DNA from: Lotus japonicus
Lineage: Eukaryota; Streptophyta; Magnoliopsida; Fabales; Fabaceae
Assembly (NCBI RefSeq): GCF_012489685.1
Contig: NC_080046.1
Span: 20,707,304 to 20,771,303, forward strand
DNA: 64,000 bases
Direction of reading: 5' to 3'
A program made the translations under genes and the position numbers. The notes beneath the pieces were generated by a model. That model worked only from the letters and a program-made list of their open reading frames with translations, ran no database searches and had not been told where the DNA came from. This document shows, in pieces, positions 9,889 to 37,644 of the stretch (position 1 is its first letter; every line of letters starts with the position of its first letter).

Positions 9889-11799
9889 ATGGCTGCCACC
9901 ACCAGTGAAACTCAAAGAGATGGTTACAATGCAAAGCCTCCTATGTTCGACGGTCAAAGGTTCGAATATTGGAAAGATAGACTGGAAAGTTTCTTTCTGG
10001 GTTTCGATGCAGATCTCTGGGATATTATTGTGGATGGCTACGAGCGTCCAATTGATGCAGATGGCAAGAAGATCCCAAGGTCAGAGATGACTGCAGATCA
10101 AAAGAAGCTGTACTCACAACATCACAAAGCAAGAGCAATTCTTCTAAGTGCTATTTCCTATGAAGAGTACCAGAAGATTACAGATCGTGAGTTTGCTAAA
10201 GGCATTTTTGAATCTCTGAAGATGTCTCATGAAGGAAACAAGAAAGTCAAAGAATCAAAGGCATTGTCTTTGATCCAAAAGTATGAATCCTTCATCATGG
10301 AGCCAAATGAGTCCATTGAAGAAATGTTCTCCAGATTTCAATTGCTTGTAGCTGGCATACGACCTCTCAACAAGAGCTACACAACAAAAGATCATGTCAT
10401 AAGGGTCATCAGGTGTCTTCCTGAAAGTTGGATGCCTTTGGTGACTTCAATAGAGCTCACGAGAGACGTTGAGAATATGAGGTTAGAAGAACTCATCAGC
10501 ATTTTGAAATGCCATGAGCTGAAGCGCTCAGAGATGCAAGATCTGAGGAAAAAGTCCATAGCCTTGAAATCCAAATCTGAAAAGGCTAAGGTTGAGAAGT
10601 CAAAGGCTCTTCAAGTTGAAGAAGAAGAATTTGAAGAAGCATCAGAAGATTCTGATGAAGATGAGCTGACTCTGATCTCCAAGAGACTCAACCGCATCTG
10701 GAAGCACAGGCAGAGCAAGTTCAAAGGCTCTGGAAAGGCAAAAGGAAAGTATGAGTCCTCAGGCCAGAAGAAGTCTTCAATCAAGGAAGTCACATGTTTT
10801 GAGTGCAAAGAATCTGGGCACTACAAAAGTGATTGTCCAAAGTTGAAGAAAGACAAGAAGCCAAAGAAGCACTTCAAGACGAAGAAGAGTCTGATGGTGA
10901 CATTTGATGAATCAGAGTCAGAGGATGTTGACTCTGATGGTGAAGTCCAAGGACTCATGGCAATTGTCAAAGACAAGGAAGCAGAGTCAAAGGAAGCTGT
11001 TGACTCTGACTCAGAATCAGAAGGAGATCCTAACTCAGACGATGAAAATGAGGTATTTGCTTCTTTCTCTACCTCTGAACTGAAACATGCTTTGTCTGAT
11101 ATCATGGATAAGTATAACTCCTTATTGTCTAAGCATAAAAAGTTGAAAAAGAACTTATCTGCTGTCTCCAAGACTCCTTCTGAACATGAGAAAACTATTT
11201 CTGATTTGAAAAATGAAAATCATGCTTTGGTAAATTCTAACTCTGTGCTTAAGAACCAGATTGCTAAGTTAGAAGAAATTGTTGCCTGTGATGCCTCTGA
11301 TTGTAGGAATGAATCTAAGTATGAAAAGTCTTTTCAAAGATTCCTAGCTAAAAGCGTGGATAGAAGCTTAATGGCTTCAATGATCTATGGCGTAAGCAGA
11401 AATGGAATGCATGGCATTGGCTATTCTAAACCAATTAGAAATGAGCCTTCTGTGTCTAAAGCTAAATCCTTGTATGAATGCTTTGTTCCCTCTGGTACCA
11501 TATTGCCTGATCCTGTACCTGCTAAAATTGCTAAAAACCCTCTTAAAAAGGGATCTTTCTCTATGACTAAATATCATGCAAATATTCCTTTAAAATATTA
11601 TGTTGAGACACCCAAGGTGATCAGAACCTCTGGGGTAACTAACAAAAGAGGACCCAGAAAGTGGGTACCTAAGGACAAGATTATCTATGTTGCAGATATC
11701 CTTGATAGCTCCACTGAAACACCAATCATGGTATCTGGACAGTGGATGCTCGCGTCACATGACGGGAGAAAAGCGTATGTTCCGAGAGCTGAAACTTAA
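9889..11799 (+). CDS. gag: gag of element B (636 aa)
   Basis: ATG at 9889 in the good plant context aacaATGGC, 60 nt after the primer site. Structural nucleocapsid polyprotein of a copia element. Visible parts: N-terminal [20 protein letters not shown]; copia gag core (about 80-230); Lys-rich segment with [24 protein letters not shown] zinc knuckle [14 protein letters not shown] at about 303-316; Glu/Asp/Ser-rich region; Lys-rich coiled region with [20 protein letters not shown]. The last 50 residues ([15 protein letters not shown] to YVPRAET) overlap the start of the pol frame. Pol is in the +1 frame, so a frameshift or another bypass is needed for Gag-Pol. No stops or indels seen. Confidence 0.93.
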
Positions 11800-14791
11800 G
11801 CCTGGAGGCGAAGTTGGCTTCGGAGGAAATGAAAAGGGTAAAATTGTTGGTACTGGTACTATTTGTGTAGATAGTAGTCCATGCATTGATAATGTTTTAT
11901 TGGTAGACGGCTTAACACATAACTTATTGTCTATAAGTCAATTAGCTGACAAGGGTTATGATGTTATATTCAATCAAAAGTCCTGCCGGGCTGTAAGTCA
12001 GATCGATGGCTCTGTTCTGTTTAACAGCAAGAGGAAGAACAACATCTATAAGATCAGATTATCTGAGTTGGAGGCTCAGAATGTGAAGTGCCTTCTGTCT
12101 GTTAATGAAGAGCAGTGGGTATGGCATAGACGGTTAGGGCATGCCAGTATGAGAAAGATTTCTCAGCTGAGCAAGCTAAACCTTGTCAGGGGCTTACCCA
12201 ATCTGAAGTTCGCTTCAGACGCTCTTTGTGAAGCATGTCAGAAAGGCAAATTCACAAAAGTCCCTTTCAAGGCAAAGAATGTTGTCTCAACCTCAAGGCC
12301 ATTAGAACTTCTGCATATCGACCTGTTTGGACCAGTGAAAACTGAGTCTATAGGTGGCAAGAGATATGGGATGGTTATCGTTGATGACTATAGCCGCTGG
12401 ACATGGGTAAAGTTTCTAACCCGCAAGGATGAGTCTCATGCTGTGTTCTCTACCTTCATTGCTCAAGTGCAAAACGAGAAGGCTTGTAGGATTGTGCGTG
12501 TCAGAAGTGACCATGGTGGAGAGTTTGAGAATGACAAGTTTGAGAGTCTGTTTGATTCCTATGGAATTGCGCATGATTTCTCTTGTCCCAGAACTCCTCA
12601 ACAAAATGGTGTTGTTGAGAGGAAGAACAGAACTCTTCAGGAGATGGCTAGAACCATGCTCCAAGAAACTGGCATGGCTAAGCACTTTTGGGCAGAGGCA
12701 GTAAATACAGCATGTTACATTCAGAACAGAATCTCTGTGAGACCAATTCTGAATAAGACTCCTTATGAATTGTGGAAGAACATAAAACCCAACATTTCTT
12801 ATTTTCATCCTTTTGGCTGTGTTTGTTATGTTCTCAATACTAAGGATAGATTGCATAAATTTGATGCTAAGTCTTCTAAGTGTCTATTACTCGGTTACTC
12901 TGAGAGATCTAAAGGTTTTAGATTTTATAATACTGTTGCTAAGACTATTGAAGAATCTATTCATGTTAGATTTGACGATAAGCTTGACTCTGACCAGTCA
13001 AAGCTAGTTGAAAAGTTTGCAGATTTAAGCATTAATGTTTCTGACAAAGGCAAAGCTCCAGAGGAAGTTGAGCCAGAGGAAGATGAACCAGAGGAAGAAG
13101 CTGGTCCCTCTAACTCACAAACTCTGAAGAAGAGCAGAATCACTGCAGCTCACCCTAAGGAATTGATTTTGGGCAACAAAGACGAACCAGTCAGAACCAG
13201 ATCTGCCTTCAGACCCTCTGAAGAGACCTTGCTCAGTCTGAAAGGATTGGTGTCCTTAATTGAACCCAAGTCCATAGATGAAGCTCTTCAGGACAAGGAT
13301 TGGATTCTGGCTATGGAAGAAGAATTGAATCAATTCTCCAAGAACGATGTTTGGAGCTTAGTGAAGAAGCCTGAGAATGTTCATGTTATTGGAACGAAAT
13401 GGGTATTCAGAAACAAGCTAAATGAGAAAGGAGAAGTAGTCAGAAACAAGGCAAGGCTAGTTGCTCAAGGCTACAGCCAGCAGGAAGGAATAGACTACAC
13501 TGAAACATTTGCTCCGGTAGCAAGACTGGAGGCAATTAGACTGTTGATCTCCTTCTCAGTAAATCACAACATAGTTCTACATCAGATGGACGTGAAGAGT
13601 GCCTTCCTAAATGGTTATATTTCAGAGGAAGTCTATGTTCATCAACCCCCAGGTTTTGAAGATGAGAAGAAACCGGACCATGTGTTCAAATTGAAGAAAT
13701 CACTCTACGGTCTGAAGCAAGCTCCCAGAGCATGGTATGAGAGACTCAGCTCATTCCTTCTGGAGAATGAGTTTGTAAGGGGTAAAGTAGATACAACTCT
13801 TTTTTGCAAGACTTATAAAGATGATATCTTAATTGTGCAAATTTATGTTGATGATATTATATTTGGTTCTGCTAATCAATCTCTATGCAAAGAATTTTCT
13901 GAGATGATGCAGGCTGAATTTGAGATGAGTATGATGGGAGAATTAAAGTACTTTCTGGGAATACAAGTTGATCAAACACCAGAAGGAACATATATCCATC
14001 AGAGCAAGTACACTAAAGAACTTCTGAAGAAGTTCAATATGCTGGAATCTACAGTGACCAAGACTCCAATGCATCCTACATGCATTTTGGAGAAAGAAGA
14101 TAAAAGTGGTAAAGTATGTCAGAAGCTCTATCGTGGAATGATAGGTTCACTTCTATACTTAACTGCATCTAGGCCAGACATATTATTTAGTGTTCACTTA
14201 TGTGCTCGTTTCCAATCAGATCCAAGGGAAACCCACTTAACTGCTGTTAAGAGGATCCTAAGGTATCTGAAAGGCACCACTAACCTTGGCTTGATGTATA
14301 AGAAAACATCAGAGTATAAGCTTTCAGGTTATTGTGATGCTGATTATGCTGGAGATAGAACAGAGAGAAAAAGTACTTCTGGAAATTGTCAATTTCTGGG
14401 AAGCAATCTAGTCTCATGGGCAAGCAAGAGGCAATCAACCATTGCACTATCAACTGCAGAGGCAGAATATATCTCAGCAGCAATATGCAGCACTCAGATG
14501 CTCTGGATGAAACATCAGCTGGAGGATTATCAGATCCTTGAGAGCAATATCCCAATTTATTGTGATAACACTGCTGCAATCTCGTTGAGCAAGAATCCTA
14601 TCTTGCATTCAAGGGCAAAGCACATTGAGGTAAAGTATCACTTCATTAGAGATTATGTGCAGAAGGGCGTACTTCTTCTGAAGTTTGTTGATACTGACCA
14701 TCAATGGGCAGATATCTTTACAAAGCCCTTAGCTGAAGATAGATTTAGTTTTATTCTGAAAAATCTAAACATGGACTTTTGTCCAGAGTGA
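11687..14791 (+). CDS. pol: pol of element B: protease, integrase, reverse transcriptase, RNase H (1034 aa from first ATG)
   Basis: Order is PR-INT-RT-RH, diagnostic of Ty1/copia. Protease motif [11 protein letters not shown] at 17-27. Integrase zinc finger from HRRLGH to CEACQKGK; catalytic D212 (HIDLFGP), D275 (RSDHGGEF) and E311 (VVERKNR), a correct D,D(35)E. RT has [31 protein letters not shown] and YVDD at 720-723. RNase H has YCDADYAGD (D884) and STAEAEY. The frame is open from 11639, so it overlaps gag by 161 nt. The ATG at 11687 is probably not the real start, since product is expected through frameshifting. Intact. Confidence 0.95.
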
Positions 14792-15076: not shown

Positions 15077-15234
15077 ATTTGATAAAACCCACTATACACA
15101 CATGTTCTTGTTCACTTCCGGTTTTCACTCTCGCACTCTCTGCTTTTCAAAACCGCCTCTTTCTTGATTTCTCTCTCGATCTCTCTTCATCCTTCAAACT
15201 TCATCTTCTACCTCAAACCTTCAACCTCTTCAAA

Positions 15235-17906
15235 ATGGTGAGACAAACCAGAAGATCTGCTGCAGATGCACCTCAGTTCCCTAACATGGTAGTTGGTTTG
15301 GCAACGGGTCAAAGGGGCTCTGAGAACCCGGCACAAGAACAAGTTCAAGTTCAAGAGCAGATTGTTCCAATTGCAGAACGGGGCTGTGCCGTTCACTGCG
15401 TATTTGCTCCTGAGGAACTCCAAGTCCTGGCAGAATGGAGATTCGACCTCGACAACCTGGCTGCAAATGGGTTTGATCTTCGTCCTGAAGTCCAAGCTCA
15501 AGGTTGGGGAAACTACTTCAATCGACTTCGAGGACCGGTGTATGAGAAACTGGTAAAGGAATTCTGGAAGCACGCAGACTGCGATGATACTCAAGTGGTC
15601 TCTCACATTCTTGGCAGGAAGATCATCATCACTGAGAAGTCATTCGTGAATCTGCTAGGAGCAGAAACTGCTTATGGGTATCGGTTCCAACTGACGGAAT
15701 CCAAGCTGAAACCCAGCACCAAAGACAAAGTCAACAAGGCCCTGTACACCACCTTCAAACCGGGCAAGACGAGTTACAAGGTGATGGATCTTCATCCCAA
15801 ACTCAGGATCTGGCACAAGATCCTGCTCAACTGCATCAATCAGAGACCGAAGGGAAGTTCCCCAGATTACATCAACTTCAACCAGAAGGCGATGCTGTTT
15901 TTCATTCAAGACAAGGAGAAGATCTGCCTTCCCTACTTCCTGTTCTCCTACTTGAAGGAATGCATCAGGAAGTCTCGCACCACCGCCTCCATCAAGTCTG
16001 CAATCAAATATATCCCTTTTGGGAGGCTGCTCTCAGACTTTCTCATTGAAAGCAACTTGGTGCAAGATTTGATCAATGCTGGTTGCACAGAGGATTTGAG
16101 CACAATTGTCAGTGATGTCTTCACTGCAAACTCCTTGAAGAAGATGGGCTTAATCCAGAAGAAGATTGCTCCTGCTCATGAAGACACATCTTCTGAGATC
16201 AGAGGAAGAAGAATGCCTCTGAATGACTACCCTCTGTGGACTCAAGCGGAAAATCCTGACGCCATCAGATGCTATGTTGAAGACCTCAGGGCTCAAGGTT
16301 TCGAAATTGACCTTGATGATTTCGTCAGCAGACTACCGCCAGCTCCAGAGTTTCCTTCTCCTCCCAAGAGGAAAGCTCAGAGGAAGATGGTTCTGGACGA
16401 ATCTTCTGAGGAATCTGATGTCCCTCTGGTCAAGAAGACGAAGAGAAAGCCTGATGATGGTGATGATGATGATAGTGAGGATGGTCCTCCCCAGAAGAAG
16501 AAGAAGAAAGTCAGAATCGTGGTGAAGCCTACTCGGGTGGAACCAGCTGCTGAAGTGGTCAGAAGGACTGAACCTCCTGCCAGAGTGACTCGATCATCAG
16601 CACATTCAAGTAAGCCTGCACTTGCTTCTGATGATGATTTGAATTTATTTGATGCACTTCCTATTTCTGCCTTGCTTCAACACTCCTCAAATCCCCTCAC
16701 TCCTATTCCTGAATCCCAACCAGCCGCCCAAACCACCTCTCCACCACATTCCCCAAGATCCTCCTTCTTTCAACCTTCTCCTACCGAAGCACCTCTCTGG
16801 AATTTGCTTCAGAACCCAACCTCTAGGTCAGAAGATCCGACCTCTCTCCTTACTATTCCGTACGACCCATTATCTTCTGAACCCATCATCCATGACCAAC
16901 CAGAACCCAACCAAACAGAACCACAACCCAGAACGTCTGATCACTCTGCTCCCAGAGCATCAGCACGTCCTGCTGCTAGAACCACGGATACAGACTCTTC
17001 AACAGCCTTTACACCTGTATCCTTCCCAATCAATGTTGTTGATTCTTCTCCCTCCAATAACTCTGAATCAATTAGAAAATTCATGGAGGTTAGAAAAGAG
17101 AAGGTGTCTGCCTTGGAAGAGTATTACCTTACCTGTCCAAGCCCTAGGAGATATCCTGGCCCTAGACCTGAACGTCTAGTTGACCCAGATGAACCTATCT
17201 TGGCCAATCCTATCCAAGAGGCAGACCCCTTAGTTCAACAAGCTCACCCTGTCCCTGACCAACAAGAGCCCATTCAACCAGACCCTGAACCCGAACAATC
17301 AGTGTCTAACCAATCCTCGGTTAGATCACCTCACCCTCTGGTTGAAACTTCAGACCCTCACCTTGGAACCTCTGAACCCAATGCTCCCATGATTAACATT
17401 GGTTCTCCACAAGGTGCCTCTGAAGCTCATAGCAACATTGGCTAGTGGCTCAAGTTCCGATTATGATGCAGCTCCAGCATGCAGAGGGCAGTCAGAGCAT
17501 TGAGGCTGCAAAGCAAAGGTTTGCTAGAAGGGTGGCTCTTCATGAACTAGAACAGAGAAATAAGCTTCTTGAAGCTATTGAAGAAGCCAAGAGAAAGAAA
17601 GAACAAGCAGAAGAAGCTGCACGTCAAGCTGCAGCTCAAGCTGCACAAGCCAGACTTGAGGCAGAGCGACTTGAAGCTGAGGCTGAAGCTCTTAGATGCC
17701 AAGCACTTGCACCAGTTGTGTTTACTCCTGCTGCTTCTGCTTCCATTCCAGATCCTCAAGCTGCTCAGAATGTTCCTTCCAGTTCTACTCAGACAAGCTC
17801 ATCCAGACTCGACATCATGGAACAACGTCTTGACACTCATGAATCCATGCTGATTGAGATGAAGCACATGATGATGGAACTTCTGCGACGCACTGACAAA
17901 CCTTAG
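15235..17906 (+). pseudogene. Envelope-like ORF of element B, frameshifted by a deletion
   Basis: ATG at 15235 (TCAAAATGGTGAG). The first frame runs to 17445 and stops at SNIG; the rest (17445-17906) is in another frame. Compared with C and D, about 190 bp are missing near 17430 (the segment with SLSECINIF and ADEWN), which explains the shift. The N-terminal 330 residues are conserved (KEFWKHADCDDTQVVSHILG, KICLPYFLFSYLKECIRKS). Next come basic/acidic nuclear-signal-like clusters (KKTKRKP, KKKKKVRIVVKP), a Pro-rich region and a C-terminal coiled coil (LEAERLEAEAEA). No signal peptide or membrane span is evident. Confidence 0.85.
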
Positions 17907-18106: not shown

Positions 18107-18499
18107 CTAGAATGGAGGATCTCTCCTCATTCTTCTGCACTCCTGGCGCTGCTCTGACCTATCCTTCTCCAGACGCTCCAGTACATGCTGGATGTTGCTG
18201 AGCCTGATCTTTAGCTCATCCCTCTCCAGAATCTCTTCTGAAGTCTTGAGCTTCTCTTCCACTCTCTCTTTCTCTTCCAGCAGCTTGAGTTCAAGCCGGC
18301 TGAGTTCTTGCACCTCCTCCACGAAGGCAAGAAATTCCTTCAGGTCTCTCTCCAACTCTGGACGCAGGTCCTCTTCGAGCAGTGTCCGCGTCAGCTCCGC
18401 GATGGTAGTTGCACCCTCTGGATGCCTGATGTTCAGGAACAAGTCCTCTTCAAAGGCCTTCTTCCTCAGCTCTTCTAGTGCTACGTTGTATGATGCCAT
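18107..18499 (-). CDS. Conserved antisense ORF of element B (130 aa, coiled-coil)
   Basis: ATG at 18499 in a strong plant context (AAAAATGGC), stop at 18107. Opposite in strand to gag, pol and env, converging on the env stop 200 bp away. Highly charged Glu/Lys/Leu/Arg protein starting MASYNVALEELRKKAFEED and ending QECRRMRRDPPF, with heptad-like LELKLLEEKERVEEKLK in the middle; no family recognised. C and D encode a 130-aa homologue with about 72% identity to this one, mostly conservative exchanges and no indels. A TATA-like ATAAATAG (minus strand, 18690-18683) lies about 185 bp upstream. A real expressed protein is inferred, not shown. Confidence 0.75.
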   Translation of the reverse strand: MASYNVALEELRKKAFEEDLFLNIRHPEGATTIAELTRTLLEEDLRPELERDLKEFLAFVEEVQELSRLELKLLEEKERVEEKLKTSEEILERDELKIRLSNIQHVLERLEKDRSEQRQECRRMRRDPPF

Positions 18500-19306
18500 T
18501 TTTTTTTTCTGAAAATTATTCGAGGTGTGAAGCTTACCTTTCTCTCCAACGCTTTTCATAGGCTTCACTTTCTCTCTGAAAGTTAATGCTCTTACAGTTT
18601 CTCGAGGTTAAGTTCTTGGTAACTGACCCTTCTATTTACTCACTTGACCGGTGGTAAACGTTCATCCCTTGCATTAACTCTTCTATTTATTTTCGCCTAA
18701 CTCTGATTCTTACATCGTTTTCATTTTCTTTTAAACTTAGACCTTCTCTAACGGGGAGTACCTTGTACTTCAAGCTAAGTTTTTCACACCCCAAGCTTTT
18801 TGCTTATGACAAAAAGGGGGAGTAAACCCAGTTTTTGATGTGTAAGATGTGTTAGTGTGACTTATTTTTCTTTTGGAGATTTTAAGAGTTCCACCTTCAT
18901 GACCATAGATGTGTCACTGGGCAAATACAAGGAATACATTTCACTTCTTCTGTAGTGATTCTAAGTTGACTGTGATACCCAAGACTCTGATACCTTGTCC
19001 TTGACTCTGATCACTTATGCGCTCTGTTTATTCGTTTTTCATCTATGTCATAAGCTTTTCACTCTGAACTCTTATGTTTTTTTTTAGCTCAGAATCTAGA
19101 CTTTACTAACGTTTTCATCAAGTATTAGATTCAGGGGGAGCTAAGCTCAGAATCAAGCAGTGACTTGAATTCAGAATGAGCAAGATAAACTATTCACATC
19201 AGGATAAGTCTTAATCTATATCTCTAAACTCTGAGTGAATTCAGTTTAATGTTTAAGAATTGTTCATCAAAAATCTTAGTTTTGTCATCATCAAAAAGGG
19301 GGAGAT
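18500..19306 (+). other. 3' non-coding region of element B with polypurine tract and PPT-like copies
   Basis: The polypurine tract AAAAAGGGGGAGAT (19293-19306) abuts the 3' LTR. Similar motifs lie at 18811-18822 (AAAAAGGGGGAG), near 18753 (CGGGGAG) and at 19131-19140 (TCAGGGGGAG). Multiple PPT-like motifs are a reported Sirevirus trait. No sense-strand gene seen; this would also be the upstream region of the antisense ORF. Confidence 0.8.
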
Positions 19307-20525
19307 TGTAAGATCAAGTTTTGATCTAGTAGTACAACTCTATGTTTTGATGATTACAAGTTAACCTTTTGATATGAACAATTGTGGTACTCTAACGTGT
19401 TTTTCTGAGTGTGCTATTTACAGGCTCTGACCTCAACTCAATCTCACACAAATCAGAAGCACTGTGTATAAAGGGTAACCCAAGCAACGCTTTCGCATTC
19501 ACCCTGTTCAGTATGAACAGTGGAAAAGCTTCAGAAGTTCTGAAGCTATACAAACTCTGATGTGGACTCAGTCGCTAGAAGCTCTGAAGATCCAGAAGTT
19601 CTGATAACCAAGAAACACTGAAGGTTCAGATGTTCTGATGGTGTAGAAGATTCTGAAGATCCAGAAGCTGAATAGTGGAAACTCTGAAGTCCAGAAGCAA
19701 GAAACTCTGAAGGCCATGTTCTTCCCTCTGAGTTCAGAATCAGAAGATACAATGGTCAGAGGATCTGTGCTTTCCCTCTGACTCTGATCAACCGGCTTCA
19801 CAAGTTCCAATATGAAGTATTCCCCTGATCAGAAGTCTCCTAGGTTAAAAGGTCAAGTCGCTATCCAAGTACAAAAGCAAGTGTACCTTCCTGACGACCT
19901 ACCTAACGTTCTCAGCCACAGCAGAAGCTGGATTTTCCAGAACTGCCCTCCAACGGTAGCATTTCCCATGCAACGCTCAACCCTAATCCTTGGAGTATAT
20001 ATAGAGGCTGAAGATTGAAAGAAGTGGCTAGAAATAGAGAAAAAGAAATACACACGCGCAAGACATATTCAAAATATTCTAAGCTTTCTTTCATCTGAAA
20101 TTCATTGTGTTTACTATTAGCTTTTTAGAAGCAAATCTCTTGTAAACATTTCTTTGATAAAATGTTTGTTTAGTTCCTTTAGGAGATCAAGGTTGATCGG
20201 ATCCTAGAGAAGACTAAGAGAGTGAATCTTAGTGTGAGCTAAGTCAGTGTAATTGTTAGTCACTTGTAGGTTTCAAGTGCAGTTGTAACTCTTACCTGAT
20301 TAGTGGATTGCCTTCATTCTAAGAAGGAAGAAATCACCTTAACGGGTGGACTGGAGTAGCTTGAGTGATTTATCAAGTGAACCAGGATAAAATCCTTGTG
20401 TGCTTTTCTATCTCTTATCTTTAGCACTTAAGTTCTCGAAAGATTTGCCAAAATCTTTAAGGTGGAAGTTTTGTACTGAAAACGTTATTCAAACCCCCCC
20501 CTTTCTACCGTTTTTCATACCTTCA
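19307..20525 (+). repeat. 3' LTR of element B
   Basis: 1219 bp, TGTAAGATCAAG to CATACCTTCA, nearly identical to the 5' LTR and followed by TSD AGAAT (20526-20530). Confidence 0.96.
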
Positions 20526-22603
20526 AGAATAAGGGGCAGGTCATGCCGATTTTATTTTGAGAGTGTGAGAAAGTTTGACGGGACGGGTTTGTTTTGGGAA
20601 CGTTTGTTAGGTCGAACCAAGGTTCGAACCTTCATTGTTTTAGGGGATCTAGTGTTTTCTCGGAGAGTTGTTTGGGTTTGATGGGAACTTTGAACTTATA
20701 GAGTTTTGGACCGAAAATAATCATAATATGTTTTATGTAAATAAATCCATAATATACTTACTAAGAATATAATGTTTTAATTAATGACGATGATTCAACA
20801 GAAAAGACTTAGGAATGAAAGTGAGTTTGGAAAACGGGAATGGGTCGGTGATCCTAGCTTTGGGAACTTTATTTTGAAAGGTGTTGGAAATGAAAACTGA
20901 ACTTTGGAATTAACGACATAATGGATTAACTCACGATGGAACACTTTACCTAATAAAAGAAATATTGTTTTAAGGGAACTCATTTTTATGGAAAAGAATT
21001 TGAAGACGGGCTTTAGCCAAGGGTCTGGGCATTAGTAAGGTACCTAGTAGAGTACACTTGGCACAACAGGTAGTGACGGTCAGCCGTGTAGAGTTGTATC
21101 GTGCCTGTTGATGTCTGGCGTAGCAAGCAGAATGGTTAAACCCGTAGGGTCACAACCGACTTGACTATAGCCTAGGGTTCTCGTTGTAGAAGCCTTTGGT
21201 CAATGAACCAATTTTACCTGTGAGGACGAATCGTTGTTTAGCTAACCATATTGCACCCATGCATACACGCGATGAAGTGCCAAGTGGAGTACTTCGGTAT
21301 AGCAGGAAGCAACGATCAGCCGTGTAGAGTTGAATCGGTCCTGATTATACCTGGCACAACAGGAGGTAACGATCATCCATGTAGAGTTGTATCGTGCCTG
21401 TTGATGTCCGGCATAGCAAGCAGAAATGGTCGAACCATGTAGAGTTTGTACCGTCTTGACTATAGCCAAAGGTGATAAGTGACGCCCGAGCAGAAATGGT
21501 TAAACACGAGGCCAGTGTTACGACCGTCTCGAGGTGCCCAGCCTTTAAGTGGCAATACCATTGGTTTGTCCCGTCGCCAAGCAGAGTGACGTTATTCGGG
21601 TTTGTGTCAGCATATTCTGCATTGGCACACCATGCATCTTATTATGATTACCGTTGCATTGACATATCATGCACTTTAACTATATTCGTTGATATATTGC
21701 TTATCGAGTTTTCTAGATATAACTTATTGAATCGCTGAGTGTGATTGATAATTGTTAATCTTATCTGATGCATGCTAATTGTTTCGTCTTTTATATTCAT
21801 TGTGAAATATACAACCCTAGGATGTTATCCCTAGCTATAAGCCTAAGTGGCTATTCTCTTATCTATATCTATTGGTGGTATTATTTACATAATTCTTTGG
21901 AGTTGACCCTCGCGTCTTCTGTGTGTGCTTTGGCGGACAAACGCCCTTTGTCAGATGTCTATGGCGGACTGATTCACGAGGGTTCACCCTTCGGGGGGGA
22001 ACTAGGTTCGAGATGCCGGGATAGGAGCGCATCGCGGTAGCGAGAGGAGGACGGATGGTGTACATAGACTTGGTCGTTCTGGATTCAGATTCGGACGGCG
22101 ATCATGCAAGCACGTAGGTTTGAGTGCTGGTGTGAGCTCCTCGAGATAGGATTAGTGTAGGAGTAGAGTCTTAGCTCTGACCGTCATCATTTTCTTTGGG
22201 GACAGGGTAGTTTTCCCGCCTATAGCTTTTTGTGTGGTTTCTTTACGGGAATCACAGAAAGTTGGTTGGACTTAGGAGGTATTCTTTCAGACCGTTTGGG
22301 CTAACTTATTCTCATTTTTGAGGGATAGTGTTGCGAACACTTGACCTTCCTTTTGGATTTTACATTTGCCTACGGGCGTTACTTTCAACTACTTTCCGTC
22401 ACTGGAGGTTTACTCGTGACGTGGTTTGCAACTTACAGCGGGGGCTGTATTTATATTATACATTAGTTCTGTTATCTTTTGTTGGGAGTTTATTTCTTTC
22501 AGTCTTTGGTTCTATTATCAAAAAAAAAAATATAATTCACATTTTTCCGCTTAAACTTTCTTTTTGGTTACTAAAGTGACGCCACCGAAATCGGGGTGTT
22601 ACA
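20526..22603 (+). repeat. Gypsy solo LTR G1, right part
   Basis: It continues G1 after the AGAAT duplication and ends CGGGGTGTTACA at 22603, followed by the second copy of GAATG (22604-22608). Homologous to the first part of G2 in opposite orientation (AAGGGGCAGGTCATGCCG in both, with few changes). Confidence 0.85.
21059..21472 (+). repeat. Degenerate internal repeats in LTR G1
   Basis: A unit of about 115 bp (GGCACAACAGG, CGTGTAGAGTTGTATCGTG, TAGCAAGCAGAA, TTGACTATAGCC) occurs at about 21059-21172 and 21352-21472, with a partial copy at 21294-21350. The matching stretch of G2 (about 41150-41345) is shorter and lacks this array. Confidence 0.65.
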
Positions 22604-24918: not shown

Positions 24919-25254
24919 CTAGAATGGAGGATCCCTCCTCATTCTTCTGCACTCCTGGCGCTGCTCTGACCTATCCTTCTCCAGACGCTCCAGTACATGC
25001 TGGATGTTGTTGAGCCTGTCTTTTAGCTCATCCCTCTCCAGAATCTCTTCTGCAGTCTTGAGCTTCTCTTCCAAGATCTCTTTTTCTTCCAGCAGCTTGA
25101 GTTCAAGCCGGCTGAGTTCTTGCACCTCCTCCACGAAGGCAAGAAATTCCCTCAGGTCTCTCTTCAACTCTGGACGCAGGTCCTCCTCCAGCAGTGTCCG
25201 TGTCAGCTCCGAGATGGTCGTTATACCCTCTGGATGCTTAATGTTCAGGAACAA
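24919..25254 (-). pseudogene. Antisense ORF of element A, start codon deleted
   Basis: Open in the same frame as the 130-aa antisense ORF of B, ending QECRRMRRDPPF. A deletion of about 75 bp removes the ATGGC start region and first residues. The homologous frame continues upstream of the internal Met at 25254 into ALEELRKKAFEED. Close to B (RTLLEEDLRPEL, LSRLELKLLEEKE). Confidence 0.6.
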
Positions 25255-26039
25255 GTCCTCCTCGAAGGCCTTCTTCCTCAGCTCTTCTAGTGCTACGATG
25301 CTTCACTTTCTCTCTGAAAGTTAATGCTCCTACAGTTTCTCGAGATTAAATTCTTGGTAACTGACCCTTCTCTTTACTCCCTTGACCGGTGGTAAACGTT
25401 CTTCTCTTGCATTAACTCTTCTATTCATTTCGCCTAACTCTGATTCTTGCATCGTTTTCATTTTCTTTAAACTTAGACCTTCTCTAAGGGGGAGTACCTT
25501 GTACTTCAAGCTAAGTTTTTCACACCCCAAGCTTTTTGCTTATGACAAAAAGGGGGAGTAAACCCAGTTTTTGATGTGTAAGATGTGTTAGTGTGATTTA
25601 TTTTTCTTTTGGAGAATTTAAGAGTTCCACCTTCATGACCATAGATGTGTCACTCGGCAAATACAAGGAATACATTTCACTTCTTCTGAAGTGATTCTAA
25701 GTTGACTCTGATACCCAAGACTCTGATACCTTGTCCGTGACTCTGATTACTTATGCGCTCTGTTTACTCGATTTTCATCTATGTCATAAGTTTTTCACTC
25801 TGAACTCTTATATCATTTAGCTCAGAATCTAGACTTTACTAACGTTTTCATCAAGTATTAGATTCAGGGGGAGCTAAGCTCAGAATCAAGCAGTGACTTG
25901 AATTCAGAATGAGCAAGATAAACTATTCACATCAGGATAAGTCTTATTCTATATCCCTAAACTCTGAGTGAATTCAGTTTAATGTTTAAGAATTGTTCAT
26001 CAAAAATCTTAGTTTTGTCATCATCAAAAAGGGGGAGAT
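25255..26039 (+). other. 3' non-coding region of element A with PPT
   Basis: PPT AAAAAGGGGGAGAT at 26026-26039 next to the LTR and a second AAAAAGGGGGAG at 25546-25557. Otherwise as in B; the TATA-like ATAAATAG of the other copies is altered here. Confidence 0.75.
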
Positions 26040-26789: not shown

Positions 26790-28044
26790 GGGTTGAATAA
26801 CGTTTTCAGTACAAAACTACCACCTTAAAGATTTTGACAAATCTTTCGAGAACTTAAATGCTAAAGATAAGAGATAGAAAAGCACACAAGGATTTTATCC
26901 TGGTTCACTTGATAAATCACTCAAGCTACTCCAGTCCACCCGTTAAGGTGATTTCTTCCTTCTTAGAATGAAGGCAATCCACTAATCAGGTAAGAGTTAC
27001 AACTGCACTTGAAACCTACAAGTGACTAACAATTACACTGACTTAGCTCACACTAAGATTCACTCTCTTAGTCTTCTCTAGGATCCGATCAACCTTGATC
27101 TCCTAAAGGAACTACCACTAAGATTCACTCTCTTAGTCTTCTTAAGGATACTGACCTACCCGGTCCCTTAAGGAAAATCAAACAACTGTTTGAGGTTGGT
27201 GTTTACAAGGGTTTGCTTCTAAATAAGCTGAGTGTAAACTAAATAAATTACAAGATGAAAGAAGGCTTAGAATATTTTTGAATATGTCTTGCGCGTGTGT
27301 ATTGCTTCTTGCTATTCTTCTAGCCGCTTCTTTCAATCTTCAGCCTCTATATATACTCCAAGGATTAGGGTTGAGCGTTGCATGGGAAATGCTACCGTTG
27401 GAGGGCAGTTCTGGAAAATCCAGCTTCTGCTGTGGCTGAGAACGTTAGGTAGGTCGTCAGGAAGGTACACTTGCTTTTGTACTTGGATAGCGACTTGACC
27501 TTTTAACCTAGGAGACTTCTGATCAGGGGAATACTTCATATTGGAACTTGTGAAGCCGGTTGATCAGAGTCAGAGGGAAAGCACAGATCCTCTGACCATT
27601 GTATCTTCTGATTCTGAACTCAGAGGGAAGAACATGGCCTTCAGAGTTTCTTGCTTCTGGACTTCAGAGTTTCCACTATTCAGCTTCTGGATCTTCAGAG
27701 TCTTCTACACCATCAGAACATCTGAACCTTCAGTGTTTCTTGGCTATCAGAACTTCTGGATCTTCAGAGCTTCTAGCGACTGAGTCCTCATCAGAGTTTG
27801 TATAGCTTCAGAACTTCTGAAGCTTTTCCACTGTTCATACTGAACATGGTGAATGCGAAAGCGTTGCTTGGGTTACCCTTTATACACAGTGCTTCTGATT
27901 TGTGTGAGATTGAGTTGAGGTCAGAGCCTGTAAATAGCACACTCAGAAAAACACGTTAGAGTACCACAATTGTTCATATCAAAAGGTTAACTTGTAATCA
28001 TCAAAACATAGAGTTGTACTACTAGATCAAAACTTGATCTTACA
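26790..28044 (-). repeat. 3' LTR of element D, missing its last ~30 bp
   Basis: Reverse complement runs TGTAAGATCAAG (at 28044) to about TTATTCAACCC (26790). The terminal part present at 37645-37675 in the 5' LTR is absent. A TATATATA box is present on the minus strand around 27350. Confidence 0.92.
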
Positions 28045-28850
28045 ATCTCCCCCTTTTTGATGATGACAAAACTAAGATTTTTGATGAACAATTCTTAAAC
28101 ATTAAACTGAATTCACTCAGAGTTTAGAGATATAGAATAAGACTTATCCTGATGTGAATAGTTTATCTTGCTCATTCTGAATTCAAGTCACTGCTTGATT
28201 CTGAGCTTAGCTCCCCCTGAATCTAATACTTGATGAAAACGTTAGTAAAGTCTAGATTCTGAGCTAAAACATATAAGAGTTCAGAGTGAAAAGCTTATGA
28301 CATAGATGAAAAACGAATAATCAGAGCGCATAATTGATCAGAGTCATGGACAAGGTATCAGAGTCTTGGGTATCAGAGTCAACTTAGAATCACTTCAGAA
28401 GAAGTGAAATGTATTCCTTGTATTTGCCCAGTGACACATCTATGGTCATGAAGGTGGAACTCTTAAATTCTCCAAAAGAAAAATAAGTCACACTAACACA
28501 TCTTACACATCAAAAACTGGGTGTACTCCCCCTTTTTGTCATAAGCAAAAAGCTTGGGGTGTGAAAAACTTAGCTTGAAGTACAAGGTACTCCCCCTTAG
28601 AGAAGGTCTAAGTTTAAAGAAAATGAAAATGATGTAAGAATCAGAGTTAGGCGAAAATAAATAGAAGAGTTAATGCAAGGGATGAACGTTTACCACCGGT
28701 CAAGTGAGTAAATAGAAGGGTCAGTTACCAAGAACTTAACCTCGAGAAACTGTAGGAGCATTAACTTTCAGAGAGAAAGTGAAACCTATAAAAAAACGTT
28801 GGAGAGAAAGGTAAGCTTCACACCTCGAATAATTTTCAGTAAGAAAAAAA
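28045..28850 (-). other. 3' non-coding region of element D with PPT
   Basis: PPT (reverse complement of 28045-28058) abuts the 3' LTR; a second PPT-like motif is at 28526-28537 and others lie near 28590 and 28212. On the plus strand this is the upstream region of the antisense ORF, with ATAAATAG at 28657-28664. Confidence 0.78.
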
Positions 28851-29243
28851 ATGGCATCATACAGAACGACATTAGAAGAGCTCAGAAGGAAGGCTTTTGA
28901 GGAAGATATGTTCCTCAATATTAGGCATCCCGATGGTACAAAGACCATACAAGAGCTGACGAAGACACTGCTGGAAGAAGATCTTGGTCTAGAGATGGAG
29001 AAAGATCTGAAGGAGTTCCTCTGCTTCGTGGAGGAGATTCAGGAGCTTTGCCAGCGGGAGCTGAATCTGCTGGAAGAGAAGGAGACTGTGGAAAAGAGAC
29101 TCAAGACGACAGAAGATAGTCTAGAGAGAGATGAGCTGAGCATCAAACTCGGCAACATAGAGTATACACTGGATCGTCTGGAGAAGGAAAGAGTGGAGCA
29201 GCGCCAAGAATGCAGAAGAATGAGGAAGGATCCTCCATTCTAG
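28851..29243 (+). CDS. Conserved antisense ORF of element D (130 aa, coiled-coil)
   Basis: Opposite in strand to the rest of D. ATG in AAAAAAATGGC at 28851, stop at 29243. Starts MASYRTTLEELRRKAFEED and ends QECRRMRKDPPF; rich in Glu, Lys and Leu with a heptad-like centre. Very close to the copy in C (a handful of changes) and about 28% different from B, always at the same length. The ATAAATAG element lies 187 bp upstream. Function unknown; no homologue recognised. Confidence 0.75.
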   Translation: MASYRTTLEELRRKAFEEDMFLNIRHPDGTKTIQELTKTLLEEDLGLEMEKDLKEFLCFVEEIQELCQRELNLLEEKETVEKRLKTTEDSLERDELSIKLGNIEYTLDRLEKERVEQRQECRRMRKDPPF

Positions 29244-29461
29244 ATGTAGGGAATAATGTATGATGGAAAGAATTATGATGTTAACATAGAACGATTATGA
29301 ATAAAACAAGTTTTGCAAACATATGTGACACAAATATATAGATATATGCATATAGAATCACAAACGAACAAATGAAAATAAGTAAATAAAAAAAAAGGAA
29401 ACAGAGTTTAACAAAAAGGAAAACAAAGTAAACGAAAGAAGAAAAAGAAGAGATCCTAAGA

Positions 29462-32311
29462 CTAAGGTTTGTCAGTGCGTCGCAGAAGTTCCATCATCAT
29501 TTGCTTCATCTCAATCAGCATGGATTCATGAGTGTCAAGACGTTGTTCCATGAGGTCGAGTCTGGATGAGCTTGTCTGAGTAGAGCTGGAAGGAACGTTC
29601 TGAGCAGCTTGAGGTTCTGGAATGGAAGCAGAAGTAGCAGGAGTAAACATAACTGGTGCAAGTCGCTCTGCCTCAGCCTCAGCTTCAAGACGCTCTGCCT
29701 CAAGTCTGGCTTGTTCAGCCTGAGCTGCTGCTTGACGTGCAGCTTCTTCTGCTTGCTCTTTCTTTCGCTTGGCTTCTTCAATAGCTTCAAGAAGCTTATT
29801 TCTCTGTGCTAGTTCATGAAGAGCCACTCGTCTAGCAAACCTCTGCTTGGCAGCCTCAATCCTCTGACCTCCCTCTGCATGCAGGAGCTGCAACATGATT
29901 GGAAACTGAGCCACTAGCCAAGTGCTCAAATTGTTCCACTCATCAGCCACATGTTCAGCATTCTCACTGAGATCAGTCTGACCGTGCACATTGCGGAGCC
30001 TCAAGGAGGCTTCATGATAGAAAATATTGATGCACTCAGAGAGAGATGTGGGTTGGAGGTGAGTATAGGGAATGATGGAGAGGTTGGTTTTAGGAGAGGC
30101 TGGGTGATTGCTGCTATGAGCTTCAGAGGCCACTTGTGGAGAACCAATGTTAATTATGGGAGCATTGGGTTCAGAGGTTCCACGGTGAGGGTCTGAAGTT
30201 TCAACCAGAGGGTGAGGTGATCTAACCGAGGATTGGTTAGACACTGATTGTTCAGGTTCAGGGTCTGGTTGAATGGGCTCTTGTTGGTCAGGGACAGGAT
30301 GAGCTTGTTGAACTAAGGGGTCTGCCTCTTGGATAGGATTGGCCAAGATAGGTTCATCTGGGTCAACTAGACGTTCAGGTCTAGGGCCAGGATATTGCCT
30401 AGGGCTTGGACATGTAAGGTAATATTCTTCCAAGGAAGATACCTTTTCTTTCCTAACCTCCATGAATTTTCTAATTGATTCAGAGGTATTGGAGGGAGGA
30501 GAGTCAATGACATTGATTGGGAAGGATACAGGGGTGAAGGCTGTGGAAGAGTCTGTATCCGTGGTTCTGGCAGCAGGACGTGCTGATGCTCTGGGAGCAG
30601 AGTGATCAGACGTTCTGGGTTGTGGTTCTGTTTGGTTGGGCTCGGGTTGGTCATGGATGATGGGTTCAGAAGGTAATGGGTCGTATGGAATGGTAAGGAG
30701 AGAGGTTGGATCTTCTGACCTAGAGGTTTGGGTCTGAAGCAAATTCCAGAGAGGTGCTTCAGTAGGAGAAGGTTGAAAGAAGGAAGATCTTGGGGAATGT
30801 GGTGGAGTGGTGGTTTGTGCGGCTGGCTGGGATTCAGGAATAGGAGTGAGGGGATTTGAGAAGTGTTGAAGTAAGGCAGAAATAGGAAGTGCATCAAATA
30901 AGTTCAAATCATCATCAGAAGCAAGTGCAGGCTTACTTGTATGTGCTGATGATCGAGTCACTCTGGCAGGAGCTTCAGTCCTTCTGACCTCTGCAGCAGC
31001 TGGTTCCACCCGAGTAGGCTTCACCACAATTCTGACCTTCTTCTGCTTCTTCTTTGGAGGACCATCCTCACTATCATCACCATCATCATCAGCAGGCTTG
31101 CTCTTCGGTTTCTTGACCAGAGGGACATCAGATTCCTCTGAGGATTCTTCCAGAACCATCTTCCTCTTGGTTTTCTTCTTGGGAGGAGAAGGAAACTCTG
31201 GTGCTGGTGGAAGTCTGCTGACAAAATCATCAAGGTCAATCTCGAATCCTTGAGCCCTGAGGTCTTCAACATAGCATCTGATGGCGTCAGGATGGTCTGC
31301 TTGAGTCCACAGAGGGTAGTCATTCAGAGGCATTCTTCTTCCTCTGATCTCAGAAGATGTGTCTTCATGAGCAGGAGCAATCTTCTTCTGGATTAAGCCC
31401 ATTTTCTTCAGAGAGTTGGCAGTGAAGACATCACTGACAATTGTGCTCAAGTCCTCTGTGCAACCAGCATTGATCAAATCTTGCACCAAGTTGCTTTCAA
31501 TGAGAAAGTCTGAGAGCAGTCTCCCAAAAGGGATATATTTGATTGCAGACTTGATGGAGGCGGTGGTGCGAGACTTCCGGATGCATTCCTTCAAGTAGGA
31601 GAACAGGAAGTAGGGAAGGCAAATCTTCTCCTTGTCTTGAATGAAAAACAGCATCGCCTTCTGGTTGAAGTTGATGTAATCTGGAGAACTACCCTTCGGT
31701 CTCTGATTGATGCAGTTGAGTAGGATCTTGTGCCAGATTCTCAGTTTGGGGTGAAGGTCCATCACCTTGTAACTCGTCTTGCCCGGTTTGAAGGTGGTGT
31801 ACAGGGCCTTGTTGACGATGTCCTTGGTGCTGGGTTTCAGCTTGGATTCCGTCAGTTGGAACCGATACCCATAAGCAGTTTCTGCTCCTAGCAGATTCAC
31901 GAATGACTTCTCAGTGATGATGATCTTCCTGCCAAGAATGTGAGAGACCACCTGAGTGTCATCGCAGTCTGCGTGCTTCCAGAATTCCTTTACCAATTTC
32001 TCATACACCGGTCCTCGAAGTCGATTGAAGTAGTTTCCCCAACCTTGAGCTTGGACTTCAGGACGAAGATCAAACCCATTTGCAGCCAAGTTGTCGAGGT
32101 TGAATCTCCATTCTGCCAGGACTTGGAGTTCCTCAGGAGGAAAGACACAGTGAACGGCACAGCCCCGTTCTGCAATAGGAACAACCTGCTCTTGAGCTTG
32201 AACTTGTTCTTGTGCCGGGTTCTCAGAGCCTTGTTGACCCGTTGCCAAACCGACTACCATGTGAGGGAACTGGGGTGCATCTGCAGTAGATCGTCTGGTT
32301 TGTCTCACCAT
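29462..32311 (-). CDS. Envelope-like ORF of element D (949 aa, intact)
   Basis: ATG at 32311 (TCAAAATGGTGAG), stop at 29462. Starts MVRQTRRSTADAPQF. Conserved N-terminal domain to about residue 330 (NYFNRLRGPVYEKLVKEF, SPDYINFNQKAMLFFIQDKE); basic/acidic clusters around 375-432 (KKKTKRKM, KKPKSKP, KKKQKKVRIVVKP); Pro/Ser/Thr-rich region to about 740; C-terminal coiled coil about 815-885 (LEAIEEAKRKKEQAEEAARQ). Such downstream ORFs in Sireviruses are called envelope-like. No signal peptide or membrane segment is seen, and the basic clusters look nuclear, so an envelope role is doubtful. The frame is unrelated to pol, with a 443-bp gap. Confidence 0.85.
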   Translation of the reverse strand: MVRQTRRSTADAPQFPHMVVGLATGQQGSENPAQEQVQAQEQVVPIAERGCAVHCVFPPEELQVLAEWRFNLDNLAANGFDLRPEVQAQGWGNYFNRLRGPVYEKLVKEFWKHADCDDTQVVSHILGRKIIITEKSFVNLLGAETAYGYRFQLTESKLKPSTKDIVNKALYTTFKPGKTSYKVMDLHPKLRIWHKILLNCINQRPKGSSPDYINFNQKAMLFFIQDKEKICLPYFLFSYLKECIRKSRTTASIKSAIKYIPFGRLLSDFLIESNLVQDLINAGCTEDLSTIVSDVFTANSLKKMGLIQKKIAPAHEDTSSEIRGRRMPLNDYPLWTQADHPDAIRCYVEDLRAQGFEIDLDDFVSRLPPAPEFPSPPKKKTKRKMVLEESSEESDVPLVKKPKSKPADDDGDDSEDGPPKKKQKKVRIVVKPTRVEPAAAEVRRTEAPARVTRSSAHTSKPALASDDDLNLFDALPISALLQHFSNPLTPIPESQPAAQTTTPPHSPRSSFFQPSPTEAPLWNLLQTQTSRSEDPTSLLTIPYDPLPSEPIIHDQPEPNQTEPQPRTSDHSAPRASARPAARTTDTDSSTAFTPVSFPINVIDSPPSNTSESIRKFMEVRKEKVSSLEEYYLTCPSPRQYPGPRPERLVDPDEPILANPIQEADPLVQQAHPVPDQQEPIQPDPEPEQSVSNQSSVRSPHPLVETSDPHRGTSEPNAPIINIGSPQVASEAHSSNHPASPKTNLSIIPYTHLQPTSLSECINIFYHEASLRLRNVHGQTDLSENAEHVADEWNNLSTWLVAQFPIMLQLLHAEGGQRIEAAKQRFARRVALHELAQRNKLLEAIEEAKRKKEQAEEAARQAAAQAEQARLEAERLEAEAEAERLAPVMFTPATSASIPEPQAAQNVPSSSTQTSSSRLDLMEQRLDTHESMLIEMKQMMMELLRRTDKP

Positions 32312-32469
32312 TTTGAAGAGGTTGAGGGTTTGAGGTAGAAGATGAAGTTTGAAGGATGAAGAGAGATCGAGAGAGAAATCAAGAAGGAGGCGGTTTTGAA
32401 AAGCAGAGAGTGCGAGAGTGAAAACCGGAAGTGAGAGAGAACGTGTGTGTATAGTGGGTTTTATCAAAT

Positions 32470-32509
32470 AACCGTTGTTGATTCAAAAAGCACTTTAAGA
32501 TCAACGGTT
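32470..32509 (-). promoter_or_regulatory. Hairpin in the pol-to-env leader, element D
   Basis: Same paired AACCGTTGAT / ATCAACAACGGTT structure as in B and C, between pol and the envelope-like ORF. Role unknown. Confidence 0.4.
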
Positions 32510-32754
32510 GAAAATTAAAGATATATAGTAACAGTAAAATACACAATCACACACAGGAGATAAGCATATCTACACGCAATCATAACAGACTATCACACGG
32601 GCACAAGGAACTATGCATCAGAAATTCTGACGCACGTGTTGTTGTCTCAGCTTCAGAGTCAGTACCAGTGGGCACACACACTCTGATTGAGTTACCTTCT
32701 GGACTAGACATCTTCTGATCAAGAAGTATCATAGTCAGAGGTTCTGATCCATCT

Positions 32755-35700: not shown

Positions 35701-35859
35701 AATTTTACCCTTTTCATTTCCTCTGAAGCCAACTTCGCCTCCAGGCTTAAGTTTCAGCTCTCGGAACATACGCTTTTCTCCCGTCATGTGAAGCGAGCAT
35801 CCACTGTCCAGATACCATGATTGGTGTTTCAGTGGAGCTATCAAGGATATCTGCAACAT
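32755..35859 (-). CDS. pol: pol of element D: protease, integrase, RT, RNase H (1034 aa from first ATG)
   Basis: Full PR-INT-RT-RH polyprotein without stops. The layout and length match B, so the integrase D,D(35)E triad and the YVDD of RT fall at the same residues. The protease motif reads [11 protein letters not shown], with Leu where the other copies have Arg, next to the active-site DSG; its effect is unknown. Read in the +1 frame relative to gag. It should be expressible only through gag, which is broken in this copy. Confidence 0.94.
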
Positions 35860-37572: not shown

Positions 37573-37630
37573 TGTTTTTCACACCGGCCCGGATCACTGA
37601 ACACTGTTAGGTGTGGTAATCAGAACTTGC

Positions 37631-37642
37631 GCTCTGATACCA
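37631..37642 (-). other. Primer binding site, element D
   Basis: Reverse complement is TGGTATCAGAGC, two bases from the LTR end. Confidence 0.95.
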
Positions 37643-37644
37643 AT

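What the first reader, a model, noticed from the sequence alone, without database searches (positions are those of the whole stretch)
18107..18499. Conserved 130-aa antisense ORF in a Sirevirus family, diverging as a discrete cassette
Seen: elements B (18499-18107), C (52086-51694) and D (28851-29243) each carry, opposite to gag/pol/env, an ORF of exactly 130 codons with an AAAAATGGC start; A has a start-less copy (25254-24919). B and C proteins differ at about 36 of 130 sites, mostly K/R, E/D, V/I or L/M exchanges, with many silent changes and no indel or stop. The roughly 200 bp just upstream of the start are about 96% identical between B and C, and pol differs by only a few percent. So divergence is concentrated in the ORF, and coding on the antisense strand seems preserved by selection. 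Antisense ORFs are known in some plant LTR retrotransposons; I do not know of this coiled-coil protein being characterised in Sireviruses.
Basis: partly seen in the sequence, partly recalled or inferred. Interest (0 to 1): 0.9.

Follow-up and report, generated by a model that had tools for sequence, protein, structure and literature searches.

The report
Antisense accessory gene in Sirevirus retrotransposons
A young plant retrotransposon family carries, on the strand opposite its main genes, a small conserved protein gene that exists in two anciently diverged versions swapped like a cassette between otherwise nearly identical elements.

Summary
Three young Sireviruses in the window (B, C, D; LTR pairs 99.4-99.9% identical) each carry a stop-free 130-codon ORF antisense to gag/pol/env, between env and the 3' LTR. 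A fourth copy (A) lacks the start region. B and C proteins differ at exactly 36 of 130 sites. Between B and C, dS is 1.05 in this ORF but 0.06 in pol, 0.13 in gag and 0.18 in env. dN/dS in the antisense frame is 0.15-0.19 among B, C and D; no other frame is stop-free in all three. Substitution-redistribution simulations reject non-coding drift (0 of 20,000 as extreme). The divergent block B/D is 18140-18486, nearly the ORF. A whole-genome search scored 150 matches; 149 have no internal stop, but these are the best-scoring, B-like copies. Seven database proteins are relatives. No fold, Pfam or PDB relative was found. Best reading: a genuine antisense accessory protein gene, spread by recombination. 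Antisense extra ORFs are known in Ty3/gypsy; my searches listed none in Sireviruses. Function and transcription are untested. The planned survey of C-type copies failed (search tool unavailable).

The parts
18107..18499 (-). antisense ORF of element B, 130 codons, type 1 (P0001)
51694..52086 (-). antisense ORF of element C, 130 codons, type 2 (P0002)
28851..29243 (+). antisense ORF of element D (D lies on the minus strand), 130 codons, type 2 (P0003)
24919..25296 (-). start-less antisense ORF copy of element A, type 1; codons 6 onward
18500..18740 (-). conserved stretch upstream of the antisense ORF, with TATA-like AAATAAATAG about 190 bases before the ATG and a GGTAAG...TTTTCAG stretch ending about 10 bases before the ATG; promoter role inferred
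   Evidence: alignment; identity; exact TATA-like motif in 39 of 49 loci
18140..18486 (-). segment of raised divergence B versus D (86 of 347 sites differ inside, 110 of 2269 outside)
9889..11799 (+). gag of element B (copia-type gag, zinc knuckle)
11687..14791 (+). pol of element B (integrase, copia-type reverse transcriptase)
15079..17445 (+). env-like ORF of element B, 788 aa; the ORF is broken compared with the 1001-aa ORFs of C and D
19297..19306 (+). terminal Sirevirus polypurine tract AGGGGGAG + AT before the 3' LTR of B
   Evidence: definition in PMC2829016
8600..9817 (+). 5' LTR of element B
19307..20526 (+). 3' LTR of element B (99.4% identical to its 5' LTR)
41998..54114 (+). element C, LTR to LTR (LTRs 99.9% identical)
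26790..38928 (-). element D, LTR to LTR (LTRs 99.9% identical)

Best explanation
The ORF is a real accessory protein gene of a young Sirevirus family, encoded on the strand opposite gag-pol-env in the env-3' LTR linker. Shown by sequence: one frame only is open in B, C and D, it is under purifying selection, and it exists as two types that are much older than the elements carrying them. Inferred: it is transcribed from its own promoter in the conserved linker upstream of its ATG. Inferred: the ORF types move between element lineages by template switching during reverse transcription of co-packaged RNAs, the near-identical linker and LTR and the conserved ORF ends serving as switch points. Inferred and least certain: the product, a helical hairpin with coiled-coil periodicity, is a dimerising adaptor or regulator that aids the element (for example nuclear entry, or countering host silencing). 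Its effective partner differs enough between lineages for two types to persist. Confidence by step: protein-coding gene 0.93; recombination cassette 0.85; own antisense promoter 0.6; pro-element accessory rather than self-limiting role 0.55. The single figure below is for the first two steps plus an accessory role of some kind.
For: dN/dS 0.15 (B/C), 0.19 (B/D), 0.18 (C/D); B/C pos1/2/3 differences 18/18/54. 0 of 20,000 simulations match the low aa change or the third-position excess, for B/C and for B/D. Only the antisense frame is stop-free in B, C and D. dS 1.05 in the ORF against 0.06 pol, 0.13 gag and 0.18 env. B/D block edges fall at codon 5 and about codon 120. Among 50 fetched loci (one of them B itself) the ORF stays 97-100% like B, with ATG and TAG in place, no indel, and an internal stop in 1 of 50. 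LTRs, where scored, are as close to D's as to B's (99-100%), and downstream flanks, where scored, range 82-100%. GC in the B ORF is 52% against 36% upstream and 24% downstream. Five full-length protein relatives at 92, 79, 62, 55 and 45% identity keep 129-130 residues, three sharing a one-codon deletion. 149 of 150 scored genome matches (B included) have no internal stop.
Against: No transcript or protein evidence exists here. The 150 scored matches and 50 fetched loci are the best-scoring of 4377 first-look candidates, so they cannot give the true fraction of intact copies. All 50 are B-type; beyond the window no C-type copy was seen. A has lost the start. B/A dN/dS is 0.40. AATAAA is expected by chance. 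A second, distant Sirevirus family next door has no homologue. The C/D signal alone is modest (P 0.026 for aa changes, 0.056 for third positions). The B/C block extends beyond the ORF into the downstream spacer (17956-18486). NG dS near 1 is close to saturation and imprecise.
Confidence: 0.75

Rival explanations
1. Self-limiting or self-recognition factor: the antisense protein restrains the element that encodes it and its close kin, and swapping to the other ORF type lets an element escape cross-restriction. This works like yeast Ty1 copy number control but is encoded differently.
For: Divergence limited to one cassette on near-identical backgrounds. This parallels canonical Ty1 versus Ty1', where gag divergence arose by horizontal transfer and recombination and restriction depends on the gag type present (PMC7055915, passages).
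Against: Ty1 p22 is a sense-strand Gag fragment; this protein has no gag match in Pfam. No restriction data. Two types may be mere history.
Confidence: 0.17
2. Non-coding antisense RNA: the antisense transcript itself regulates the element (dsRNA, siRNA) and the open frame is incidental.
For: Antisense promoters or regulatory transcripts are known for plant LTR elements, including Ty1/copia (apple Mdoryco1-1, Arabidopsis AtRE1; PMC7264820), and for yeast Ty1 (PMC12786077 passages). That AtRE1 is Ty1/copia is recalled.
Against: Codon-level purifying selection, conservative replacements (mean BLOSUM62 0.75 against -0.29 simulated) and protein relatives with an in-frame deletion are not expected of a non-coding RNA.
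Confidence: 0.05
3. The interval is coding on the sense strand and the antisense frame is a mirror of it.
For: The sense frame whose third positions coincide with those of the antisense frame shows omega 0.22-0.23, and in B it is open after its first codon.
Against: C and D have a stop inside that frame. Its dS is lower and omega higher than the antisense frame's. The other two sense frames carry 4-7 stops.
Confidence: 0.02
4. Recently captured host gene fragment carried along without function.
For: GC of the ORF differs from its flanks.
Against: Divergence with dN/dS of 0.15-0.19 inside the family; no non-element homologue in Pfam, PDB or the protein database, though that database holds few plant proteins as far as the hits show. 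The host's own genes could be searched only through the top 150 element copies.
Confidence: 0.03

Closest known systems
Antisense additional ORFs between pol and 3' LTR (aORF-3R) of plant Ty3/gypsy elements: Grande gene23, RIRE2, Retand ORF4 (TRP28), bean pvRetro13 ORF2
   Same: Antisense to gag-pol, located between pol and the 3' LTR, kept in many copies, function unknown, own promoter reported for Grande (review PMC7264820, main text read; PMC11963269 passages).
   Different: Those are Ty3/gypsy. The bean ORF2 proteins are 211-939 aa (PMC4093653 passages) against 130 here. No Transposase_28 match here. Here the element is Ty1/copia and also has a sense env-like ORF.
SIRE-lineage extra ORFs (env-like, eORF-3'F)
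   Same: Same lineage and same 3' region; 74% of SIRE elements have a forward 3' extra ORF (PMC6317226 passages).
   Different: Those are forward. That survey counted only extra ORFs of at least 250 codons, so a 130-codon reverse ORF would not have been listed. It found extra ORFs in 582 Ty1/copia elements; how many are 3' reverse was not visible in the passages seen.
Yeast Ty1 / Ty1' gag mosaics and copy number control
   Same: Ty1/copia (Pseudoviridae) subfamilies with divergence concentrated in a coding cassette through recombination (PMC7055915 passages).
   Different: Ty1's cassette is sense-strand gag, and divergence also touches parts of the LTRs and pol; here it is an antisense non-gag ORF.
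Retroviral antisense genes (HBZ of HTLV-1, APH-2 of HTLV-2)
   Same: Antisense accessory proteins, as discussed in PMC11963269 (passages).
   Different: No sequence relation tested or claimed; analogy only.

Membership tests
Sirevirus (SIRE lineage, Ty1/copia) | copia-type gag and pol with integrase before reverse transcriptase | tested here: met
   element B: PF14223, zf-CCHC, gag_pre-integrs, rve, RVT_2
Sirevirus (SIRE lineage, Ty1/copia) | PPT AGGGGGAG followed by AT/TG at the 3' LTR, with further PPT copies upstream | tested here: met
   all four 3' ends (A-D), 3-4 octamers each; definition from PMC2829016 passages
Sirevirus (SIRE lineage, Ty1/copia) | env-like sense ORF after pol (optional) | tested here: inconclusive
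   1001-aa ORFs in C and D, 788 aa in B; Pfam PF20167 on B's ORF at 41.8 bits, below its cut-off of 45
Sirevirus (SIRE lineage, Ty1/copia) | PBS, LTR repeat-motif boxes, integrase signal | not tested
   not examined
plant aORF-3R (antisense extra ORF between pol and 3' LTR) | position and antisense orientation | tested here: met
plant aORF-3R (antisense extra ORF between pol and 3' LTR) | present in most copies of the family | tested here: inconclusive
   the four 3' ends A-D in the window carry it (A without start); 150 scored genome matches, but copies lacking it were not counted
plant aORF-3R (antisense extra ORF between pol and 3' LTR) | coding constraint comparable to other element proteins | tested here: met
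   dN/dS 0.15-0.19 against gag 0.12-0.18, env 0.20-0.21 and pol 0.06-0.13 among B, C, D
plant aORF-3R (antisense extra ORF between pol and 3' LTR) | antisense transcript from its own promoter | not testable with these tools
   no RNA data; upstream motifs only
Retand TRP28 / Transposase_28 antisense proteins | PF04195 domain | tested here: not met
   no such match at E <= 0.1 in any of 8 members scanned
Ty1 p22-type copy number control factor | sense-strand product derived from gag | tested here: not met
   antisense, downstream of env; no gag match in Pfam

The most novel reading that the evidence does not exclude
The antisense protein is a type-specific recognition or self-restriction factor of Sireviruses. 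Its two ancient types act like an incompatibility locus: an element that swaps its ORF cassette escapes the control exerted by resident copies, so the locus is kept divergent while recombination homogenises the rest of the element.
Probability: 0.15. Interest if true: 0.85.

Novelty: new variant of a known kind. Interest (0 to 1): 0.62.

Why it matters
Antisense accessory genes of plant LTR elements are poorly understood, and the named examples in the papers seen here are Ty3/gypsy. A compact, conserved antisense gene in a very young Sirevirus family, in two old types on otherwise almost identical backgrounds, gives a natural comparison. If type tracks amplification, targeting or silencing, the function becomes testable from existing genome and RNA data. 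It also shows that a survey with a 250-codon cut-off would miss such genes.

Tried and rejected
Fast protein evolution as the cause of the divergence: rejected, because synonymous divergence is raised as much. Sense-strand coding: rejected by stops in C and D and weaker selection statistics. Its low omega is expected because its third positions coincide with those of the antisense frame. AATAAA as a poly(A) signal: not beyond chance. An intron just before the ATG (GGTAAG...TTTTCAG): about 30 bases, shorter than plant introns usually are (recalled), so not claimed. Fold relatives: Foldseek on the AlphaFold model (pLDDT 77.8, pTM 0.62) gave none at E <= 0.001 in BFVD or PDB. The best PDB sequence hit has E 0.31. 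Pfam matches are weak (best E 0.0025) and at most 2 of 8 members share one. Viral and bacterial/archaeal contigs: none confirmed. A homologue in the neighbouring distant Sirevirus family: none by tblastn; its 140-aa antisense ORF (L052:7356-6934) has no Pfam match and was not followed further. Sampling more genome by hand: 60 kb beside the window and 50 kb on C4 held no ORF copy. The sigma-70 scan is not meaningful in a plant. AtCOPIA4 (PMC3036077, passages): 'antisense' there means laboratory knock-down constructs, not an antisense gene.

Full report
What is there. The window lies in a 553.7-Mb genome with six large contigs. I take it to be Lotus japonicus from size and chromosome number (recalled, not tested). 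It holds nested Ty1/copia elements. Pfam on element B finds copia-type gag, integrase and RVT_2. The four 3' LTR junctions of A-D carry the Sirevirus polypurine octamer followed by AT/TG, with extra octamers upstream, as defined in PMC2829016 (passages read). B, C and D are young: their LTR pairs are 99.43, 99.92 and 99.92% identical.

The antisense ORF. B (18499-18107), C (52086-51694) and D (28851-29243) each have a 130-codon ORF antisense to gag/pol/env, ending about 200 bases from the env stop. A has the same ORF from codon 6 on; its start and the bases just upstream are missing. B and C differ at 36 of 130 residues and B and D at 36, with no indel. Codon-position differences are 18/18/54 and 19/19/50.

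Coding test. Nei-Gojobori in the antisense frame gives dN/dS 0.15 (B/C), 0.19 (B/D), 0.18 (C/D) and 0.40 (B/A). Of six frames only this one is stop-free in B, C and D. The mirrored sense frame, whose third positions coincide, shows omega 0.22-0.23; it is open after its first codon in B but has an internal stop in C and D. Scattering the observed B/C changes at random over the ORF gives 3.5 stops and 55 aa changes on average. Observed are 0 and 36; 0 of 20,000 simulations reach 36 or fewer aa changes, and 2.2% have no stop. Replacements are conservative (mean BLOSUM62 0.75 against -0.29). C/D alone is weaker: P 0.026 for aa changes and 0.056 for third positions. Fifty loci were fetched from the genome: the 30 best-scoring (the first is B itself) and 20 mostly from the lower end of the 150 scored. 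All 50 have ATG and TAG and no indel in the ORF, and 1 of 50 has an internal stop. Distinct variants relative to B, counted one base at a time, are 38 synonymous, 24 nonsynonymous and 2 to stop, against an expected 22-29% synonymous. These loci were selected by protein score, so the figures are biased towards conservation.

The cassette. Between B and C, dS is 0.059 in pol, 0.127 in gag, 0.184 in env and 1.049 in the ORF. Between C and D it is 0.022, 0.068, 0.140 and 0.108. Sliding identity shows B/C and B/D at 72-77% in the three windows wholly inside the ORF. B/C and B/D are 89-100% from the window straddling the ATG through the linker and most of the LTR (falling to 69-89% in two windows of the LTR from about 20049, where the D piece ends), and 86-99% in the env windows compared. 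The spacer between env and the ORF stop is 78-91%. The best two-rate segment for B/D is 18140-18486, i.e. codon 5 to about codon 120 (86 of 347 sites against 110 of 2269 outside). For B/C it extends into the downstream spacer, 17956-18486 (114 of 531 against 107 of 2347). Because synonymous sites are as divergent as this, selection on the protein cannot be the cause of the block; an old allele on a young background can. In the 50 B-type loci the ORF is 97-100% like B, while the downstream spacer, where scored, is 82-100%. The LTR, where scored, is 99-100% identical both to B's and to D's, although D has the other ORF type. So ORF type and background are shuffled. Template switching between co-packaged RNAs is the ordinary route for this (established knowledge of retroelements; not shown here).

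Relatives. The protein database gives seven relatives, two of them partial. The full-length ones are 92, 79, 62, 55 and 45% identical to B and keep 129-130 residues. Two are labelled Bradyrhizobium sp. TM233 on short contigs of 561 and 483 bases; the strain name occurs in papers on sorghum-root isolates (search listing with abstract starts only), so I read them as plant DNA in a bacterial assembly (inference). An unrooted ML tree separates C, D and P0007-P0009 from B, A, P0005 and P0006 (support 98); C with D has 89. The species of P0005 and P0007-P0009 are unknown. The adjacent distant Sirevirus (reverse transcriptase 59% identical to B's where compared; window 60511 into L052) has an env-like ORF (PF20167, 85 bits) but no homologue of this ORF.

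Structure. AlphaFold2 from a 9-row alignment predicts helices 2-15, 18-22, 33-41, 47-86 and 90-126, with pLDDT 77.8 and pTM 0.62. The two long helices show coiled-coil-like a/d hydrophobic periodicity and high charge (no shuffled control was run for the periodicity). Foldseek finds nothing at E <= 0.001 in BFVD or PDB.

Expression signals. Upstream, B, C and D share a TATA-like AAATAAATAG or one-base variant about 190 bases before the ATG. The exact motif is kept in 39 of 49 loci tested (one of 50 dropped because its start motif was not found). AATAAA follows the stop within 150 bases in 49 of 49, but the region is so AT-rich that shuffles of B's region have it 77% of the time. Transcription is therefore inferred only.

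Literature. The 2020 review of extra ORFs in plant LTR elements (PMC7264820; main text read, last part of references not read) describes antisense ORFs for Grande, RIRE2, Retand and pvRetro13 and does not mention SIRE elements. It does report antisense promoters in other elements such as apple Mdoryco1-1, a Ty1-copia element by its cited title, and Arabidopsis AtRE1. The 2014 bean survey (PMC4093653, passages) reports opposite-strand ORF2 only in 15 Ty3-gypsy families and sense env-like ORFs in two SIRE1-related copia families; it also mentions a Lotus relative, LjRetro3. The 2019 REXdb survey (PMC6317226, passages) names forward 3' extra ORFs as typical of SIRE and used a 250-codon minimum. 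It found extra ORFs in 582 Ty1/copia elements; whether any are 3' reverse I could not see, as its supplementary files were not read. 'Antisense' does not occur in the main texts of PMC2829016 or PMC3599292. My searches listed no title or abstract start describing an antisense gene in a Sirevirus. Most listed papers were not opened, so absence from these searches is not proof of absence in print.

How it most likely works. Shown: a selected protein gene with two old types. Inferred: antisense transcription from the linker and a helical accessory protein serving the element. The alternative of a self-limiting factor is kept as a rival because Ty1 and Ty1' show a similar cassette pattern in gag, tied to copy number control (PMC7055915, passages).

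Noticed in passing
window 3979-26786: Element A appears split: its 5' part (LTR from 3979, gag-pol similarity up to about 7009) and 3' part (pol similarity from 22603, antisense ORF, 3' LTR match 26040-26786) flank a stretch that contains element B; A's 3' LTR match stops where element D begins (26790). Nested insertions (inference).
   Followed up: partly
window 24915-24919: In A, pol similarity (to 24915) runs straight into the antisense ORF's 3' end; env is missing while most of the antisense ORF is kept.
   Followed up: partly
window around 17437: B's env-like ORF is split into 788- and 153-aa frames and lacks a stretch of roughly 160 bases that C and D have; intact copies exist.
   Followed up: no
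window 18500-18540 and equivalents in C and D: GGTAAGCTTCACACCTCGAAT, identical in B, C and D, followed by a TTTTCAG-like end, lies just before the antisense ATG (exact in 45 of 49 loci); it looks like a very short intron, or a conserved signal of unknown role.
   Followed up: partly
window 60511-64000 into L052:1-7475: A second, distant Sirevirus family with env-like ORF (PF20167, 85 bits) and PPT AGGGGGAGATTG at L052:7465, without a relative of the antisense ORF.
   Followed up: partly
P0006, P0011: Two proteins filed under Bradyrhizobium sp. TM233 are close relatives of this plant retrotransposon ORF on 561- and 483-base contigs: probable plant contamination in a bacterial assembly.
   Followed up: partly
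50 B-type loci, downstream spacer: The spacer between the ORF stop and env comes in at least two clearly different forms on the same ORF type, another sign of recombination next to the ORF.
   Followed up: partly
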